From Asaia bogorensis (GTDB lineage Bacteria; Pseudomonadota; Alphaproteobacteria; Acetobacterales; Acetobacteraceae), in NCBI RefSeq assembly GCF_900465345.1, contig NZ_UEGO01000012.1, positions 62,001-126,000 of the forward strand: 64,000 bases of DNA. The letters are read 5' to 3'. This document shows positions 29,774 to 37,824 of this stretch, piece by piece; the first letter of the stretch is position 1; every line of letters begins with the position of its first letter. A model generated the notes under the pieces. That model had not been told where the DNA came from and searched no databases. It worked only from the letters and a program-made list of their open reading frames with translations. The position numbers were made by a program, and so were the translations under genes.

Positions 29774-29950
29774 CCGGAGCCTCCGGTTTTCGGAGACCGG
29801 TTTTTGTAGGCGCGCGACCCGGCTGGGCGTCAGCGCGCTGCCGCCCAGCCGCACTGTGATCCTGCTTAGTGCAGCAAGGGCCTGTGCCGGGTTTCATGAA
29901 GATTTAAAGACACGTTCTATCTCTCCCTGACTTTGGCGACGGCCATTGAT

Positions 29951-29988: not shown

Positions 29989-30501
29989 ATGGCGATGTCA
30001 GCGGCAGAATGGTGCCTCAGACAGTCCGTTTGGACGTCTTTGCACGAGCGTATCCGGCGTCAGAACCGGCGCAACGATACAGATGATCTGCTTCAGACCG
30101 CGCTCATGCATCTGTTCGAGCGCGGGCTGGACGGCATCGAACACCCCGAAGCCTATGTTCTGCGCGCGGCACGCAATCTCGCCATCGACCGCACACGGCG
30201 CGAGGCACGGCTGCGTGTGGCATCGCTCGACGATGATACCAGCGCAGAGCCCGTCTGTGCTGCGCCGGGGCCGGAACGCATCGTCTTGGGTCGCGAGCAA
30301 CTGAGGCGCGTGCGCACGGCGTTCAATGCGCTTGATCCCCGCACGGCGCGTATCTTCCTGATGCATCGTCTGGATGACCTGACCTACAGCCAGATTGCCG
30401 CGGCCCTCTCGCTGAGTGTCAGCACGATCGAAAAATCCATGGCGCGAGCCCTGGCCCATCTGGCGATGGCGCTCCTGACCGATACAGCGGTGGGCGCGTG
30501 A
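29989..30501 (+). CDS. ECF-type RNA polymerase sigma factor, FecI group
   Basis: Directs transcription of its own surface-signalling unit when released by the adjacent FecR protein. The 170-residue product has a sigma region 2 (DTDDLLQTALMHLFER and EAYVLRAARNLAIDRTRRE) and region 4 helix-turn-helix (LTYSQIAAALSLSVSTIEKSMARAL), as in FecI. Two ATGs compete (29989 and 29995); the second has the better distance to GGTCAGG. The frame overlaps the FecR gene by four bases. An ATGAAAC/GTTTCAT inverted repeat sits 11-38 bases upstream. Confidence 0.9.
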   Translation: MAMSAAEWCLRQSVWTSLHERIRRQNRRNDTDDLLQTALMHLFERGLDGIEHPEAYVLRAARNLAIDRTRREARLRVASLDDDTSAEPVCAAPGPERIVLGREQLRRVRTAFNALDPRTARIFLMHRLDDLTYSQIAAALSLSVSTIEKSMARALAHLAMALLTDTAVGA

Positions 30502-31385
30502 CGCCCGCGGAAATCGAACAGGCGGCAAACTGGCAGGCGCGGCTTATGTCCGACCGGTGTTCCGACCTCGACCGCAGGCGTTTCGACGCGTGGCTTGAGG
30601 AAAAAGAGGCGCATCATCAGGCCTATAATCTCGTCTCACAGATCTGGCAGGGCGGGCAGTTTGCACAGCCGCGCCGGAGAAGCGTCTTGCTGCCGCTGTC
30701 GCGTCGTGGCGTGGTGGCCGGTATCGTCGGGCTTGGGGCAAGTCTCGGTGCCGCGGCAAACGTGGCAGATGCGCGGACGATCTGTACGGGCCGCGGCGAG
30801 CACAGGCGCGTCATGGCATCCGGGCTGCGCGTGGAGATGGATGCGTGCAGCTCTCTCGTTCTCGCGCCTCGCACCGGTCGCATGGTTTTCGAGGCGGGGC
30901 GCTATGAGGTGATGGCCGCGCCATTCGGGCAGCAGGCGCAATTCGGCTGTTGCTCCTGGGCCGTGTCGGGGCGTGGTGGACGTTATGCGCTGGATGTGAC
31001 GAACACTGCCATGACGCTCGCGGTGCTTGAGGGGAACGCAAGGCTGAGGAAACCCGGCGCGTCGCATGTTGTGCAGGCTGGGCAGATCTTTGCATATGAC
31101 AGGCGGACCGATCTGGTGACCCAGCGGCCCGGGAAACTGGATGATCTGCTGGCATGGCGTGAGGGGCGCGCCGTGTTTCATGGCACGCCGCTTGCACAGG
31201 CTTTGAGCGAGATGGCCCGCTACAGCGATCGTCCTGTCCGGCTTGTTTCGCCGTCGCTCGCCTCCCTGCGCATCAGCGGTGTCTTTCACACCCATGACCC
31301 GGCTCGTTTCTTCCGGGCGCTGGCGCATCTTCTGCCTTTGCGGGTGGTTTTTGCCCCCGATCTGATCTCGGTCGTGCAGCTCTGA
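30498..31385 (+). CDS. FecR family anti-sigma / signal transducer
   Basis: Inner-membrane protein that holds the ECF sigma factor and receives the signal from the STN domain of the receptor in the periplasm. GTG start within the sigma stop region. Residues ~8-50 match the DUF4880 cytoplasmic domain (AANWQARLMS, RRRFDAWLEEKEAH). A membrane segment near residues 70-95 contains SRRGVVAGIVGLGASLGAA, which has a twin-arginine look. The rest is the FecR periplasmic domain (ALDVTNTAMTLAVLEGNARL) and a C-terminal STN-like segment (LRISGVFHTHDPARFFRALAHLLPL). Length 295 residues, slightly short of typical. Confidence 0.9.
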   Translation: MTPAEIEQAANWQARLMSDRCSDLDRRRFDAWLEEKEAHHQAYNLVSQIWQGGQFAQPRRRSVLLPLSRRGVVAGIVGLGASLGAAANVADARTICTGRGEHRRVMASGLRVEMDACSSLVLAPRTGRMVFEAGRYEVMAAPFGQQAQFGCCSWAVSGRGGRYALDVTNTAMTLAVLEGNARLRKPGASHVVQAGQIFAYDRRTDLVTQRPGKLDDLLAWREGRAVFHGTPLAQALSEMARYSDRPVRLVSPSLASLRISGVFHTHDPARFFRALAHLLPLRVVFAPDLISVVQL

Positions 31386-31398
31386 TTGTTAAGCTTTG

Positions 31399-31408
31399 AT
31401 GAAACGGC
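31399..31408 (+). promoter_or_regulatory. ATGAAACGGC element ahead of the receptor gene
   Basis: Shares ATGAAACG with the element upstream of the sigma gene (29951). It lies in the 108-base gap between the FecR and receptor genes, where an ECF-dependent promoter would be expected. Weak evidence. Confidence 0.25.
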
Positions 31409-31493
31409 ATTGAAACAGATGAGGGCCTGATCGTGCCTGTCGTCTCGCCAGGGAGAGACCAATCCGGTCGTACCCTGACGGAAACCCGCTTCA

Positions 31494-34088
31494 ATGATTC
31501 CCGCCCTGTATGCCTCTGATCGCCCCGCCTCATGCCCTGTTCCTGCCAAGCAGCCGCGCAGGAATCGCCAATGTTTGGCGATGGTGCTGCTGTCGCTTTG
31601 TGCCTGGCCAATCCCTGGGCTGGCTCAGACCTCCACTGTACGGCAGACAGAGGCAGGGGATGCGGTCTCCGGGAAGGGGCGTATGGTCACAGGGTTCAGT
31701 CAGCCCGCGGGACCACTCGAAGACTCCCTGACCGCCCTCGCGAGGCAGTCCGGGCGCGACCTCCTGTTTTCGAGCGATCAGGTGCGTGGCAGGCATGCCC
31801 CGGCGCTGAAGGGGCGCCTGACGCTCGACAAGGCACTGGAGCGTCTGCTGGGCGGGTCCGGGCTGAGTGCGCATATCCAGCCCGATGGGACTGTTGTGAT
31901 CGCCAATGCCGCTCGTGGCAGCAATTTCGCGCATGACAAACACGACGACAAAACCGGGCAGGAGCATATCACGGTCATCGGGCGGGCTGAGCGCCTTGCG
32001 CCTTCCACCGTGCCGCTGACCATTACCGAACCGACCTCGGTCATCCAGAAGCGCTTCATCACCAATAATATCGTGCCACTGGCAAGCGTGGATGACATTA
32101 TCAAGTTCCAGCCGAGCATCTGGACACAGAACCCCAACGGCCCCGGTATGGGCAAGGCCGAGACCATGAGCCTGCGTGGCTTTCAGGATGGTCAGTACAA
32201 CATGCTGTTCGATGGTATCCCCTTTGGAAATGCCAGCGATCTGCACCACACCACCTCGTCGCTTTTCATTTCGCATTTTCTCGGCGAGGTGCAGGTCAAT
32301 CGTGGGCCGGGTACCGCCTCGACTATCGGCAATGCGACCTTTGGCGGGACGATCGGGTTTCAATCCCGCACCCCTGCACAGCATTTCGGGGTCACACCCT
32401 ATGGCACCTATGGCAGCTTCAACACCCGTGCCGGGGGTGTAGAGGTCGATTCCGGCAAGACCCGTTTTGGCTCGATGGTGCTCGATCTGCAGCATGAGGA
32501 GACGGATGGATATCTGACCGGCTCGGGAGAGCGGCGCAACAACCTGCTGTTCAAGGATGTCGCGCGACTGGGGGAAAACACGACCCTGACCTTGCTGACC
32601 ACCTATAACTGGGAAAACCAGAACACCACGCAGGGGGCCACGCTGGCCCAGTACCGTAAATACGGCAAGGATTATGGCCTCTGCTTCAATCCTGCGCTGC
32701 AATGCTATGCCGGGTATCAGCCAAGCACCTACACGTCGGATTTCGACTACATCGATATCAAGAGCAAGGTGCTGCCCTGGCTGACAATCGAAAACCGTCT
32801 TTATACGAACGGTTTTGAACACGATTACACCGAGTCCACCGATGCCAGTTCGGATGATCCGGGCGCCAATGGCGTGACCTTCTATTCAACTGCAGGCAAG
32901 AAGCTGGCCACATACAAGAATGACGTGCCAGGCAAATATGCCGATGCGAAATTCCGTGACTATGGCGACACACTGACCTTCAAGGCCCATACGTCGCAAG
33001 GTGATGTGCTGGTTGGTGCCTGGGCCGATCTGCAGGACGATCGGCGCTATACCTATGCCCTCGACCTGACAAAGGGCGGCATCATGGTGCCCGGCAAGAA
33101 TGGCTCGGCCTATAGCTATGATATTTCGGATTTCAACACGACCGTTCAGCCCTATCTGGAATTCGACTGGAAGCCGTTCCGCAACACCATCATCAAGCCG
33201 GGCATCAAATACTCCTATTTCCGTCGTGATTATGATGCGGCGGTCAACAAATCGACCAAGGTGCCGCTGAACGCGACGCAGCAATTCACCTCATGGCAGC
33301 CTTCGATCTCGGCAAACCAGATCATCCTGCCGGGCTGGAGTGCCTACGCCCAGATTGCCCGCGGTTTTCTGGCCCCGCCCATGAGCGTGTTCCAGACCCA
33401 GAATGTGGGCAATGTCAGCCCTGAAACCACACTGAACTATCAGATCGGCACAGTGGTGCAGCAGAAGCGCTGGACGGTCTCGTTCGACGCCTATTACATC
33501 AATTTCTCGAACTTTATTGCCTCGGCGCAGATCAAGGTGCCCGGCTTTGGCACGCAAAGCACCTCAGTAAATAGTGGTGGCGCCATCTACAAGGGGCTTG
33601 AGGTTGAGGGGCAATATGCCATCGGTCATGGCGTGTCTCTTTATGGCAATTACAGCGTGAATGACGCGCAGTACAAGCACAGCTCGGTGCGCGTGGCAGC
33701 TACCCCCAATGTGCTCGCCTCTTTTGGTGTGCTCTATGACGACAATAAGGGCCCTTATGCCTCGCTTATCGGCAAATTTGTGGGCAATCATTATGGGCTC
33801 GACAGCACCACCGATAGCGCCGGCAATACAGTCTTTGCCAATCAGTATCGTATTGGCAGCACCACCACCGCCGATCTTGCCTTGGGGTGGCATTTCAAGA
33901 AGCTGGGTGGCTTCATGCGCGATGTGACGCCCAGCCTCAAGATATCCAACCTCTTCAATAATCGTGCCATCAGCGACTTTGCCGGTAACCAGTCTGCCGC
34001 CAGCGCGGGCTATCCCGATGGCGCACCGCTTTACTGGCGTCTGGCGGGGCGCTCTGTGTTCTTCAACCTGACGGTCACCCTGCCATGA
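31494..34088 (+). CDS. TonB-dependent outer-membrane receptor with STN signalling domain
   Basis: Outer-membrane importer of the FecA/FpvA transducer type. The 864-residue product has a signal sequence ending in PGLAQ (about residue 45), an STN domain at ~67-138 (PAGPLEDSLTALARQSGRDL and LDKALERLLGGSGL), and a TonB box HITVIGR at 158-164. The plug domain follows to ~residue 290 (SLRGFQDGQYNMLFDGIPF, VQVNRGPGTAS), then a 22-strand-type barrel. The plug resembles siderophore receptors, but no siderophore genes are adjacent. The stop overlaps the phosphatase start by four bases, so the two are made together. The ligand could be iron-loaded or a phosphate ester; this is unresolved. Confidence 0.93.
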   Translation: MIPALYASDRPASCPVPAKQPRRNRQCLAMVLLSLCAWPIPGLAQTSTVRQTEAGDAVSGKGRMVTGFSQPAGPLEDSLTALARQSGRDLLFSSDQVRGRHAPALKGRLTLDKALERLLGGSGLSAHIQPDGTVVIANAARGSNFAHDKHDDKTGQEHITVIGRAERLAPSTVPLTITEPTSVIQKRFITNNIVPLASVDDIIKFQPSIWTQNPNGPGMGKAETMSLRGFQDGQYNMLFDGIPFGNASDLHHTTSSLFISHFLGEVQVNRGPGTASTIGNATFGGTIGFQSRTPAQHFGVTPYGTYGSFNTRAGGVEVDSGKTRFGSMVLDLQHEETDGYLTGSGERRNNLLFKDVARLGENTTLTLLTTYNWENQNTTQGATLAQYRKYGKDYGLCFNPALQCYAGYQPSTYTSDFDYIDIKSKVLPWLTIENRLYTNGFEHDYTESTDASSDDPGANGVTFYSTAGKKLATYKNDVPGKYADAKFRDYGDTLTFKAHTSQGDVLVGAWADLQDDRRYTYALDLTKGGIMVPGKNGSAYSYDISDFNTTVQPYLEFDWKPFRNTIIKPGIKYSYFRRDYDAAVNKSTKVPLNATQQFTSWQPSISANQIILPGWSAYAQIARGFLAPPMSVFQTQNVGNVSPETTLNYQIGTVVQQKRWTVSFDAYYINFSNFIASAQIKVPGFGTQSTSVNSGGAIYKGLEVEGQYAIGHGVSLYGNYSVNDAQYKHSSVRVAATPNVLASFGVLYDDNKGPYASLIGKFVGNHYGLDSTTDSAGNTVFANQYRIGSTTTADLALGWHFKKLGGFMRDVTPSLKISNLFNNRAISDFAGNQSAASAGYPDGAPLYWRLAGRSVFFNLTVTLP

Positions 34089-35314
34089 ACCGCGCGCTCA
34101 TTCTTTCTCTTGCGTTGGCACTGGGTGGTGCAGGTACAGCACAAGCTGCCTCATCTCCTGTTTTCTCTTCGGTCGAGCCTGAAGCGCCAGCGAGACTGGA
34201 ACGCGTTGTGCTGATCGCACGTCATGGGATACGCAGCCCGACGCATGATTCCCGTAGCCTCGAACAGGAAACCGGGGTTGTCTGGCCCTCCTGGCCGGTG
34301 GCCCCCGGCGAACTGACCGATCATGGCCGCGCCACACTCGATGCCATGATGCAGGGGGTGGCTCGCTATTATGATCTCGCCTGCACGCACAACATATCTC
34401 CCTGCATTGGGGCGACGCCTCCTTTCATATGGGCAGATTCTGCCGATGACCGCACCCGTGAGAGCGGGCGAATCATGGCCCGTGCCCTTTCGCCGGGGCA
34501 TGAAATCGCGGCCCACTCACTTGTCGCGGGGCAGCATGATCCGGTGTTTGACGCCGTGACGGCGGAATTCGTGAAACAGCACCATGATCAGATGGCGCAG
34601 GACGCGACGCAGTCAGCCCGAAATGACAGGCTGGCGCGTCCTGACAGCGTGAATGTCGGGCTGGCGGCGTTGCAGCAGCTTTTTGCGCCACAAGCCTGTG
34701 AGACGGCGCAGGGGCCCTGTTTCAAAGACGGCCTCGTGGTCAGTGAGAAAAAAGGGCGACCTTCGCTGGGCGGAGGGATGACACTGGCAGCGACGCTCGC
34801 TGAAAACCTGCTGCTGATTCATGCGCAAAGCCTCGATCAGGCAGGAAATGCGTCCGCCCGTGAGGCATGGGTCGGAAAAATCAATCCGGCTCTGCTGACA
34901 ACCGTGCTTCCGGTGCATGACTATATATCCGAACTTGTCCGCCGTCATGGTGTGGCCATAGCCGCACGCAGCGCGGTCATGGCGGATATCATCGCGCGAT
35001 TCATGGCAGGCGAGGCGATCACGCTGGGGGATGGTTCGATCGTCCCACCCGCAACGCGGCTTCTTGCCTTTGCAGGTCATGACACGACGCTTGATGCATT
35101 GGCGGCCCGATATGGTCTGGACTGGCATTTCAGTGATCAGCCGGACAGCACGGCTCCGGACACGACACTGGCTTTCGAGCAATGGCGCGATGGAAAAGGG
35201 CAGATCGTCTATCGCGCCCGGATATTCCATCAATCCCTGCAAGCCCTGAGGGAAGGCAAGAGCGGCGCCGCGCAACCGCTTGCCGTAACCCTCACCCGGA
35301 CGCGTTTACGCTAG
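34085..35314 (+). CDS. Exported histidine acid phosphatase / phytase-like enzyme
   Basis: Hydrolyses phosphomonoesters through a phosphohistidine in the periplasm. A signal peptide ends at AQAA (about residue 21). The catalytic RHGIRSP lies at residues 46-52 with nucleophile H47, the arginine-containing ADSADDRTRESG segment at ~117-128, and the proton donor pair H332-D333 in GHDTTLDAL. This is the branch that includes AppA phytase and Agp glucose-1-phosphatase, 409 residues here. Several cysteines could form disulfides. Its ATG overlaps the receptor stop (ATGA), linking dephosphorylation to uptake. Specificity (phytate, sugar phosphate, other) cannot be read from the sequence. Confidence 0.92.
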   Translation: MNRALILSLALALGGAGTAQAASSPVFSSVEPEAPARLERVVLIARHGIRSPTHDSRSLEQETGVVWPSWPVAPGELTDHGRATLDAMMQGVARYYDLACTHNISPCIGATPPFIWADSADDRTRESGRIMARALSPGHEIAAHSLVAGQHDPVFDAVTAEFVKQHHDQMAQDATQSARNDRLARPDSVNVGLAALQQLFAPQACETAQGPCFKDGLVVSEKKGRPSLGGGMTLAATLAENLLLIHAQSLDQAGNASAREAWVGKINPALLTTVLPVHDYISELVRRHGVAIAARSAVMADIIARFMAGEAITLGDGSIVPPATRLLAFAGHDTTLDALAARYGLDWHFSDQPDSTAPDTTLAFEQWRDGKGQIVYRARIFHQSLQALREGKSGAAQPLAVTLTRTRLR

Positions 35315-36753: not shown

Positions 36754-37824
36754 ATGCCTCATCCAAGGACAAGCAAAGCCATTCTAGGTGATGGCACCGA
36801 GACATCTTCGGTTCATCCGCGGCGTGCCTTGCTGGCTGCCGGTCTGGCAGGGGGGGCCGCATTTCTGTCTTCAGCCGGCGGCGCCAGGGCCGCTGCGGTC
36901 AACGATGATGGTGCGCATGCTGCGCCCAGCGCCCCTGCCGTTTTCAGTGCGGGGGCTATCCGGGCCGGCAGAGGGTCTCAGCTTCAGGGGCGCGTGGCAG
37001 TCGTCACAGGAGCGGCTCGGGGTATCGGTCGTGCCATTGCGGTCGAGTATGCCGCAAACGGGGCCGACGTGGTGGCTCTGGATATCGCCGGGCCGATAAG
37101 CGGTGTGGCTGACGCTGTGCCTGCCAGTCATGAGGAACTGGACGAGACCGTTCGTCAAATCCGGTCATTTGGTCGCCGTGCAATGGCGATAAAGGCTGAT
37201 ATCCGTCAGATCGCGCAGCTGCGAGCCGCAGCGGATGAGGTTGTCAAAGCCTTTGGCCATATCGACATCCTCGTGGCCAATGCCGCCATACAGGGCTGGA
37301 AGGCGCTGCTCGATATGGATGACGCTGACTGGGACGACCAGATAGAGAACAACCTCAATGGCACCGCACGGACCCTGCGGGCTTTTGTACCGCACATGAT
37401 CACGCGCCAGGGCGGTCGAGTGCTGATCGTCTCGTCCATGCAGGGGCGACATGGCACGAAGGGGGGCGCGAGCTATTCCGCGTCAAAATGGGGTCTGATC
37501 GGCCTGATGAAATCCGCAGCGATGGAATTTGCGCCCTATGGCATGACGGTCAATGCCATTATACCGGGGCTTGTGGGCACTGCTCTCACGCTCAATCAAC
37601 AGCGTCTTGCGGCCCTTGAGCAGCAGGTGCATCACAAGGTGCATGGCGAGATCTCACCCGCCCAGGCATGGAAGGATCGTGCCCGGACCGAGGTTCAGCC
37701 AGTCGGATGGCTACAGCCTGAGGATATCTCGCCTGTTGCCGTATTTCTGGCTTCCGACGCATCTGCCCTTACAACAGGGGCAGAATTCGAGGTTAATGGC
37801 GGTGACAGTGCTCTGATGACCTGA
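36754..37824 (+). CDS. Short-chain dehydrogenase/reductase with twin-arginine-like leader
   Basis: Classical SDR oxidoreductase. The core starts near residue 77 with the cofactor loop TGAARGIG (85-92), an acidic residue after strand 2 (VVALDIAG) that favours NAD(H), NAA at 176-178, catalytic serine in VLIVSSMQG, and Y241/K245 in YSASK. It ends with the usual FLASD...GAEFEVNGG. Unusually, ~75 residues precede the core: HPRRALLAAGLAGGAAFLSSAGGARAA, a paired arginine followed by a hydrophobic stretch and an AxA-like site, suggesting Tat export after folding with cofactor. A GGGAG site lies nine bases before the ATG. Substrate unknown. Confidence 0.88.
   Translation: MPHPRTSKAILGDGTETSSVHPRRALLAAGLAGGAAFLSSAGGARAAAVNDDGAHAAPSAPAVFSAGAIRAGRGSQLQGRVAVVTGAARGIGRAIAVEYAANGADVVALDIAGPISGVADAVPASHEELDETVRQIRSFGRRAMAIKADIRQIAQLRAAADEVVKAFGHIDILVANAAIQGWKALLDMDDADWDDQIENNLNGTARTLRAFVPHMITRQGGRVLIVSSMQGRHGTKGGASYSASKWGLIGLMKSAAMEFAPYGMTVNAIIPGLVGTALTLNQQRLAALEQQVHHKVHGEISPAQAWKDRARTEVQPVGWLQPEDISPVAVFLASDASALTTGAEFEVNGGDSALMT

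What the first reader, a model, noticed from the sequence alone, without database searches (positions are those of the whole stretch)
29989..35314. ECF sigma, FecR, STN-type TonB receptor and exported phytase-like phosphatase in one coupled unit
Sequence shows four consecutive plus-strand genes with 4-base overlaps at sigma/FecR and receptor/phosphatase. Known: FecI-FecR-FecA systems use an STN receptor to sense an outside ligand and activate transcription. The unusual part is the histidine acid phosphatase (RHGIRSP plus GHDT) translationally coupled to the receptor. I infer a surface-sensing route for a phosphorylated ligand, such as phytate (possibly iron-loaded) or another phosphomonoester, bound by the receptor and dephosphorylated in the periplasm. 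No siderophore or transporter genes adjoin it. This is my best candidate for an undescribed system.
Basis: partly seen in the sequence, partly recalled or inferred. Interest (0 to 1): 0.72.

Follow-up and report, generated by a model that had tools for sequence, protein, structure and literature searches.

The report
Surface sensor paired with secreted phytase-like phosphatase
A vinegar-type bacterium carries, as one conserved unit, an outer-membrane receptor that can probably signal to its genes and an exported phytase-like enzyme, which looks like a dedicated system to sense, import and break down an organic phosphorus compound.

Summary
In detail: ECF sigma, FecR-type regulator, STN TonB receptor and exported histidine acid phosphatase (HAP) lie in order, with 4-base overlaps at sigma/FecR and receptor/HAP. 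More exactly there are two pairs, sigma-fecR and receptor-HAP, separated by 108 bases holding a conserved promoter.
Of 299 family genomes searched, 16 hold the close receptor (67-100% identity; next best 41%). All 16 have the HAP directly downstream; 11 also have sigma and FecR upstream. The other 5, one clade, show no sigma, FecR or receptor promoter (STN absent in the 3 scanned). Asaia sp. W19 holds the full set.
One element lies upstream of both sigma and receptor. A Pho-box matrix from pstS promoters ranks it first in 23 of 24 promoters, but it is reversed and often weak. A Fur consensus gives no clear signal. Four of five receptor-free HAP loci carry pstS or phoR-phoB. Distant receptors neighbour PhoC-type acid phosphatases in 8 of 32 loci read.
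Best reading: a phosphate-starvation-gated surface-signalling system for uptake and dephosphorylation of an organophosphate, perhaps phytate; ligand unproven. A new variant of a known kind, near PUMA3 signalling and Bacteroidetes phosphate utilisation systems.

The parts
29896..29913 (-). Pho-box-like element upstream of the sigma gene (reverse orientation)
   Evidence: conserved in the 12 loci aligned; top window of the pstS matrix in 11 of 12 sigma promoters; 16-base core exact at only two places in G000
29989..30501 (+). ECF (FecI-type) sigma factor
   Evidence: Pfam Sigma70_r2, r4_2; TIGR02937 over its cut-off
30498..31385 (+). FecR-type anti-sigma / sigma regulator, GTG start, 4-base overlap with sigma
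   Evidence: Pfam DUF4880; PRK09774 E 5.5e-15, below cut-off; the only DUF4880 match in the genome
31388..31405 (-). Pho-box-like element upstream of the receptor gene (reverse orientation)
   Evidence: conserved in the 12 loci aligned; top window of the pstS matrix in 12 of 12 receptor promoters
31420..31444 (+). candidate ECF-type promoter TGAGG[GA]-N14-TCGTC before receptor
   Evidence: same sequence and spacing in 12 of 12 loci; 11 matches in the whole genome, so the pattern alone is not specific
31494..34088 (+). STN-type TonB-dependent receptor (864 aa)
   Evidence: Pfam STN, Plug, TonB_dep_Rec_b-barrel; 67-98% identical relatives in 15 other family genomes
34085..35314 (+). exported histidine acid phosphatase (AppA/phytase-like), 4-base overlap with receptor; signal peptide judged by eye
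   Evidence: Pfam His_Phos_2; NF007552; solved histidine acid phosphatases/phytases at E 3e-32 to 1e-28; R46 H47 R50 T53 R123 H332 D333 invariant in 17 receptor-linked enzymes

Best explanation
It is a cell-surface signalling and uptake unit for an organic phosphorus compound. Under phosphate starvation PhoB (inferred from the Pho-box-like elements) raises sigma-FecR and possibly the receptor. When the receptor binds its ligand outside, its STN domain signals through FecR to release the sigma factor (inferred from the FecA paradigm). The sigma factor then transcribes receptor-phosphatase from the TGAGG[GA]-N14-TCGTC promoter. The receptor carries the ligand into the periplasm with TonB energy, and the phosphatase, probably made from the same message, strips phosphate for the Pst transporter. 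A phytate-type inositol phosphate is the leading ligand candidate. Shown: anatomy, conservation, catalytic residues, conserved promoter elements. Inferred: every regulatory, transport and substrate step.
For: 16 of 16 family genomes with the close receptor have the HAP directly downstream. The 17 linked receptors (with Asaia W19) form one clade (SH-aLRT 100, quick tree). All 17 linked enzymes keep the catalytic residues. In three pairs of relatives all four genes have dN/dS 0.04-0.31, the receptor 0.04-0.06 (synonymous changes near saturation for some). The element shared by both promoters is ranked first by a pstS Pho-box matrix in 23 of 24 promoters; 0 of 200 column-shuffled matrices reach 23 (mean 1.4, max 20). 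The ECF-type promoter lies before the receptor in 12 of 12. The 5 g55 genomes without sigma and FecR matches lack it in 600 bases upstream and lack STN in the 3 scanned, while a Pho-like match remains, clear only in L098. Four of 5 receptor-free HAP loci carry pstS (3: L063, L064, L066) or phoR and phoB (3: L063, L064, L065) within about 7 kb. Distant receptors have a PhoC-type acid phosphatase within about 2.2 kb in 8 of 32 loci read; in five of those eight genomes it is the only such gene found. A second complete sigma-FecR-STN receptor-phosphatase set, with a PI-PLC+HAP fusion, exists in L075. In print: PhoB and an ECF sigma act together on PUMA3 promoters with the pho box upstream of -35 (PMC4971064, passages).
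Against: The Pho-like element is reversed relative to the pstS boxes and mostly weak: in the window it scores 9.3 (sigma) and 7.7 (receptor), as high as 2.6% and 5.5% of local 200-base stretches; over the 12 loci this share runs from 0.06% (L093) to 36% (L086 sigma). A pstS-box pattern with up to 3 mismatches does not hit the system's promoters in four genomes. Exact matches to the element's 16-base core occur only at this system in three of four genomes, so another regulator could own it. Two receptor-free HAP genes beside Pho genes (L063, L065) have no Pho-like match themselves. No inositol gene was seen among the flanking genes scanned. HAP evolves much faster than the receptor, which suggests the enzyme is less tied to one substrate. 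There are no expression, binding or enzyme data.
Confidence: 0.6

Rival explanations
1. The receptor imports a phosphorylated nutrient wanted for its carbon or cofactor part (sugar phosphate, vitamin, nucleotide), and the phosphatase removes the phosphate so that the rest can cross the inner membrane.
For: The receptor is far more conserved than the enzyme. The HAP also matches the glucose-1-phosphatase model, more weakly (E 1.1e-18). Weak similarity of the receptor to PqqU and other receptors.
Against: Pho-like elements and pstS or phoR-phoB in 4 of 5 receptor-free HAP loci point to phosphorus as the need. No inner-membrane transporter or catabolic family was seen next to the unit among the flanking genes scanned, apart from glucose-6-phosphate dehydrogenase on the other strand.
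Confidence: 0.2
2. It is a ferric-siderophore or ferric-phytate FecIRA system in which iron is the nutrient and the phosphatase strips the ligand to release iron.
For: FecI-FecR-FecA anatomy. The 12 solved chains matched are siderophore, metallophore and haem receptors, matched within the STN and plug part (residues 56-341). One distant receptor relative lies near an iron-permease-type gene (L082).
Against: A Fur consensus (recalled, E. coli) reaches at best the top 6.7% of local stretches in 24 promoters (alphaproteobacterial variants not tried). No siderophore gene among the flanking genes scanned. The recurrent partners found in the wider receptor group are phosphatases.
Confidence: 0.15
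3. The phosphatase is a passenger with its own role; its place after the receptor is an accident of inheritance.
For: A 39-45% identical HAP exists without the receptor in five genomes.
Against: 16 of 16 family genomes with the close receptor, of four genus groups, keep it adjacent, with overlapping stop and start in 9 of the 12 full loci.
Confidence: 0.03

Closest known systems
FecI-FecR-FecA cell-surface signalling (E. coli ferric citrate; Pseudomonas siderophore systems; recalled)
   Same: ECF sigma + FecR-type regulator + STN receptor, with an ECF-type promoter before the receptor
   Different: no clear Fur signal; a phosphatase is coupled to the receptor; Pho-box-like elements
PUMA3 (VreA-VreI-VreR) of Pseudomonas aeruginosa, PMC4971064 (passages)
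   Same: surface-signalling set under phosphate rather than iron control; pho box upstream of the -35 of sigma-dependent promoters
   Different: VreA lacks the barrel and seems not to transport; here there is a full receptor and a coupled phosphatase, the Pho-like box is reversed, and PhoB control is only inferred
Phosphate utilisation systems (PUS) of Flavobacterium, PMC8115612 (passages and table)
   Same: low-phosphate TonB-type receptors with co-located phosphatases and, in some clusters, ECF sigma or FecR-like regulators
   Different: PUSI and PUSII are SusCD-type with a SusD-like lipoprotein and diesterases or PhoA; here a proteobacterial receptor, no SusD among scanned neighbours, AppA-type acid phosphatase
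TonB receptor next to a phytase gene: Citromicrobium (PMC3400609, passages) and Fjoh_1367/1368 (PMC8115612, table)
   Same: receptor-phytase gene pair taken to suggest phytate import
   Different: no STN/sigma/FecR mentioned in the passages seen; Fjoh_1367 is a Pfam 02333 phytase, not a histidine acid phosphatase
AppA-family histidine acid phytases
   Same: RHGxRxP and HD motifs; best solved relatives are histidine acid phosphatases/phytases
   Different: NCBIfam equivalog cut-off not reached; activity untested

Membership tests
FecIRA-type cell-surface signalling system | ECF sigma factor gene | tested here: met
FecIRA-type cell-surface signalling system | FecR-type regulator next to sigma | tested here: met
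   DUF4880 over its cut-off; PRK09774 match below its equivalog cut-off; 4-base overlap
FecIRA-type cell-surface signalling system | TonB receptor with N-terminal STN signalling domain | tested here: met
FecIRA-type cell-surface signalling system | promoter before the receptor that depends on this sigma | tested here: inconclusive
   conserved ECF-like promoter 12 of 12, absent in 5 of 5 g55 loci without sigma match; dependence not testable
FecIRA-type cell-surface signalling system | ligand-dependent signal transfer | not testable with these tools
   needs expression experiments
PUMA3-type phosphate-controlled signalling | pho box before the signalling operon | tested here: inconclusive
   Pho-like element ranked first in 23 of 24 promoters but reversed and mostly weak
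PUMA3-type phosphate-controlled signalling | barrel-less VreA-like receptor | tested here: not met
   full barrel present
Bacteroidetes PUS (SusCD type) | SusC/SusD pair | tested here: not met
   no SusD family among the unit and the six flanking genes scanned
AppA-family phytase | catalytic RHGxRxP and HD motifs | tested here: met
AppA-family phytase | NCBIfam NF007552 equivalog cut-off | tested here: not met
   139.1 bits against 585
AppA-family phytase | hydrolysis of phytate | not testable with these tools
   needs an enzyme assay

The most novel reading that the evidence does not exclude
A TonB receptor of Acetobacteraceae senses an inositol phosphate (phytate-like) at the cell surface and switches on its own uptake and periplasmic dephosphorylation through a dedicated sigma/anti-sigma pair gated by PhoB. 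It would be one of several independent pairings of TonB receptors with exported phosphatases (HAP, PhoC-type, PI-PLC+HAP fusion) that together form a proteobacterial counterpart of polysaccharide utilisation loci for organic phosphorus.
Probability: 0.35. Interest if true: 0.75.

Novelty: new variant of a known kind. Interest (0 to 1): 0.58.

Why it matters
If true, these bacteria sense not only lack of phosphate but the presence of a given organic phosphorus source outside the cell, and tie its import to its hydrolysis. That gives a testable case for the open question of whether and how large charged organophosphates such as phytate cross the outer membrane through TonB receptors. It also suggests that some TonB receptors annotated as siderophore receptors may serve phosphorus uptake.

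Tried and rejected
Rejected: iron control. A Fur consensus (recalled, E. coli) is at background in 24 promoters; the best three sigma promoters reach the top 6.7% of local stretches.

Pho box: the conserved element was first searched genome-wide; exact hits only at this system in three of four genomes, so it is not a general Pho consensus. A pstS-box pattern gave one exact hit per genome, the pstS promoter, plus 2-7 looser hits not identified; none at this system, a result against a strong Pho box. The pstS-derived matrix was then used; its boxes were picked as best matches to a degenerate consensus that I read from pstS upstream sequences.

Pho-like matches at other receptor or phosphatase genes are weak and mixed (27 stretches): top 1-2% of local stretches for L106, L108, L070 (HAP), L075, L077, L205; 22% or worse for L063, L065, L073, L074, L206; the rest between.

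The ECF promoter pattern alone is not specific (7-12 hits per genome in six genomes; backward control 0-5). Clade-specific receptor residues (94 of 710 positions) show only a mild surplus of lysine, glutamine and tryptophan, no clear ligand hint.

Papers: searches (3 papers; 4; 0; 1; 8; 0; 3; 5; 19, 15 listed), 67 (0); passages read. The one paper does not describe such a locus in the passages.

Rows dropped or unseen: of the distant receptor hits, 26 loci were read, not all. L032 (partial) was not used in the tree; L089 and L098 were used as partial stretches and left out of the clade-specific residue count. Neighbours of distant receptors were scanned with Pfam only in part; 'none found' means only that the seven phosphatase queries gave no match, so other enzyme families may be missed. 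L102 fell inside the PAP2 clade without a PAP2 match. STN was scanned in 3 of 5 g55 receptors and 4 distant ones (none found). G157 and G285 (HAP matches) were not looked at further; L068, L069, L071, L076 only by neighbour list.

Full report
Observation. Sigma 29989-30501 and FecR 30498-31385 overlap by GTGA; receptor 31494-34088 and phosphatase 34085-35314 overlap by ATGA. Pfam and NCBIfam give ECF sigma; DUF4880/FecR; STN + Plug + barrel; and histidine phosphatase branch 2, closest to the AppA phytase model though below its cut-off. FecR and receptor are 108 bases apart, so the set is two coupled pairs. The flanks scanned are an alpha/beta hydrolase, a gene without family, glucose-6-phosphate dehydrogenase (these last two on the minus strand) and a GapR-type gene upstream; a gene without family and a short-chain dehydrogenase downstream.

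Where it occurs. The window lies in G000, family group f1. The named relative Asaia sp. W19 (L031) has the same four genes, and its receptor falls inside the window's genus group in the tree, so the organism is Asaia or close to it (inference). In 299 genomes drawn from the family, 32 have a HAP match and 135 some receptor match at E 1e-3. There is a clean gap between 16 genomes (own included) with a receptor 67-100% identical and the rest at 41% or less. In all 16 the HAP lies directly downstream. In 11 (7 of genus group g1, 1 of g9, 3 of g43) sigma and FecR lie directly upstream; in 5 (all of g55) the receptor match begins at or after the end of the STN part and no sigma or FecR match at E 1e-3 is found in 18-19.5 kb. 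Pfam finds no STN in the 3 g55 receptors scanned. The 17 linked receptors, Asaia W19 included, form one clade (SH-aLRT 100) and the 5 g55 rows one clade within it (99) (quick tree). STN, sigma, FecR and the ECF promoter are thus present or absent together, as far as scanned. That g55 lost them is my reading; the order of branching is not resolved. In 385 genomes of the class, six others have a receptor match at E 1e-60, at 31-41% identity.

The reverse does not hold. HAPs 39-45% identical occur with no receptor match in five loci (L063-L067). Of these, three carry pstS 2.6-3.5 kb from the HAP (L063, L064, L066) and three phoR and phoB within about 7 kb (L063, L064, L065); L067 has neither in the stretch read. 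PstS of L063 and L066 and PhoR/PhoB of L063 and L065 were confirmed with NCBIfam, PhoR below its cut-off; the L064 genes are assigned by similarity to these. This ties the enzyme family to phosphate acquisition.

The enzyme. The best solved relatives are histidine acid phosphatases/phytases (E 3e-32 to 1e-28). R46, H47, R50, T53, R123, H332 and D333 are invariant in all 17 linked enzymes; they correspond to the catalytic and phosphate-binding residues of AppA (correspondence recalled). dN/dS is 0.11-0.24 for the enzyme and 0.04-0.06 for the receptor in three pairs, so both are under constraint, the receptor more; synonymous distances of the enzyme are near saturation in two pairs.

The promoters. 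Aligning 12 loci shows one element before both the sigma gene and the receptor gene, consensus TKAAGMTTTRAWGAMA. In G000, G149 and G192 exact matches occur only at these two places in the whole genome; in G008 only the receptor copy is exact. The strongest pstS gene of each of 16 genomes has a Pho box upstream, for example CTTTCATAAAACTATCAT. A matrix from 11 distinct pstS boxes places its best window of 366 on the conserved element, on the minus strand, in 23 of 24 promoters; 200 column-shuffled matrices give a mean of 1.4 and a maximum of 20. Single-site scores are modest in the window (top 2.6% and 5.5% of local stretches), poor in some sigma promoters (L086, 36%) and strong in L093, where the receptor box reads CTTTCATAAAACCTTCAT in the pstS sense. 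The reversed orientation, the weak scores and the system-specific sequence argue for caution: I give the PhoB reading about 0.7.

The receptor promoter also carries TGAGG[GA]-N14-TCGTC, in 12 of 12 loci with constant spacing, like ECF promoters with a CGTC-type -10 (recalled). It starts 15 bases after the Pho-like core. In PUMA3 a pho box upstream of the -35 of sigma-VreI promoters is needed together with the ECF sigma (PMC4971064, passages). None of the 5 g55 loci has this ECF pattern in the 600 bases before the receptor match, while a Pho-like match remains, clear only in L098 (top 0.4%; top 2.7% of longer stretches).

The genome has a single DUF4880 match, so this may be the only FecR-type surface-signalling set of this bacterium.

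The wider pattern. Distant receptors (29-41% identical, by call) were read in 26 family loci and 6 class loci. In 8 of these 32 a PhoC-type PAP2 acid phosphatase lies within about 2.2 kb, in 1 (L070) a HAP, in 1 (L116) an S1/P1 nuclease. In the 8 genomes with such a neighbour there are 1-3 such PAP2 genes; in G037, G277, G174, G030 and G164 the only one found is the receptor's neighbour. On the tree the PAP2 label needs at least three changes on starred branches, so it is not one event, though five of the eight lie in one clade, with L102 which has no PAP2 match. No STN was found in 4 distant receptors scanned.

A different receptor family is coupled to a PI-PLC + HAP fusion protein in L072, L073, L074 and L075 (1-base overlap) and L077 (3-base gap) (Pfam for L072, L075, L077). 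In L075 it comes with its own sigma, FecR-type gene and STN, and in L072-L074 with a neighbouring Gfo/Idh/MocA gene whose best NCBIfam match is inositol 2-dehydrogenase, below cut-off (L072 scanned). This makes inositol phosphates or phosphoinositides attractive substrates for the theme, but does not prove the ligand of the window's receptor.

Known and new. Flavobacterium PUS clusters hold low-phosphate receptors with phosphatases and, in some, ECF sigma or FecR-like genes, and a TonB receptor lies beside a phytase (PMC8115612, passages and table). Citromicrobium has a TonB receptor beside a phytase gene (PMC3400609, passages). Caulobacter's PhoB regulon includes TonB receptors and a phytase (PMC11208175, passages). 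I found no paper describing the four-gene set (searches; open-licence papers only, listings and the passages named). The new points are the complete FecIRA-type set with a receptor-acid phosphatase pair in Acetobacteraceae, its two conserved promoter elements, and the repeated pairing of receptors with unrelated phosphatases.

Verdict. The ligand, the PhoB control and the sigma target remain to be tested by the steps listed.

Noticed in passing
L075:9216-16077 (G277): A second complete sigma - FecR-type - STN TonB receptor - phosphatase set, in which the phosphatase is a PI-PLC (Ca2+-dependent type) fused to a histidine acid phosphatase and its first base overlaps the receptor's last.
   Followed up: partly
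L072, L073, L074, L077: The same PI-PLC+HAP fusion directly after a TonB receptor (no STN in L072 and L077, the two scanned); in L072-L074 next to a Gfo/Idh/MocA oxidoreductase related to inositol 2-dehydrogenase, in L074 also a GH76 and an ABC binding protein.
   Followed up: partly
L099, L101, L106, L108, L110, L081, L205, L206: Distant relatives of the receptor within about 2.2 kb of PhoC-type PAP2 acid phosphatases; in five of the eight genomes it is the only such gene found.
   Followed up: partly
L114:7513-8478, L115:7036-8094: Distant receptor relatives next to a protein with NHL-type beta-propeller matches (weak in L115); the receptor also resembles PqqU weakly, so PQQ-type uptake is a side possibility for some of the group.
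   Followed up: partly
L031 and L032 (Asaia sp. W19): Two contigs of one assembly carry receptor+HAP pairs whose receptors are 92 and 97% identical to the window's, either two copies or a mixed assembly.
   Followed up: no
L089 (G286), L098 (G180), L094 (G279): Receptor frames (and in G286 also FecR and HAP) look interrupted in these draft genomes; decay or assembly error. Intact copies exist in relatives.
   Followed up: no
L094 and L095 (g55): The HAPs there begin with lipobox-like signal peptides (LTGC, LGGC, judged by eye), so the enzyme may be a lipoprotein in part of the clade.
   Followed up: no
window 36754-37824: Short-chain dehydrogenase with a long N-terminal extension that looks like an export signal (by eye); closest model is mycofactocin-coupled SDR, below cut-off.
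   Followed up: no
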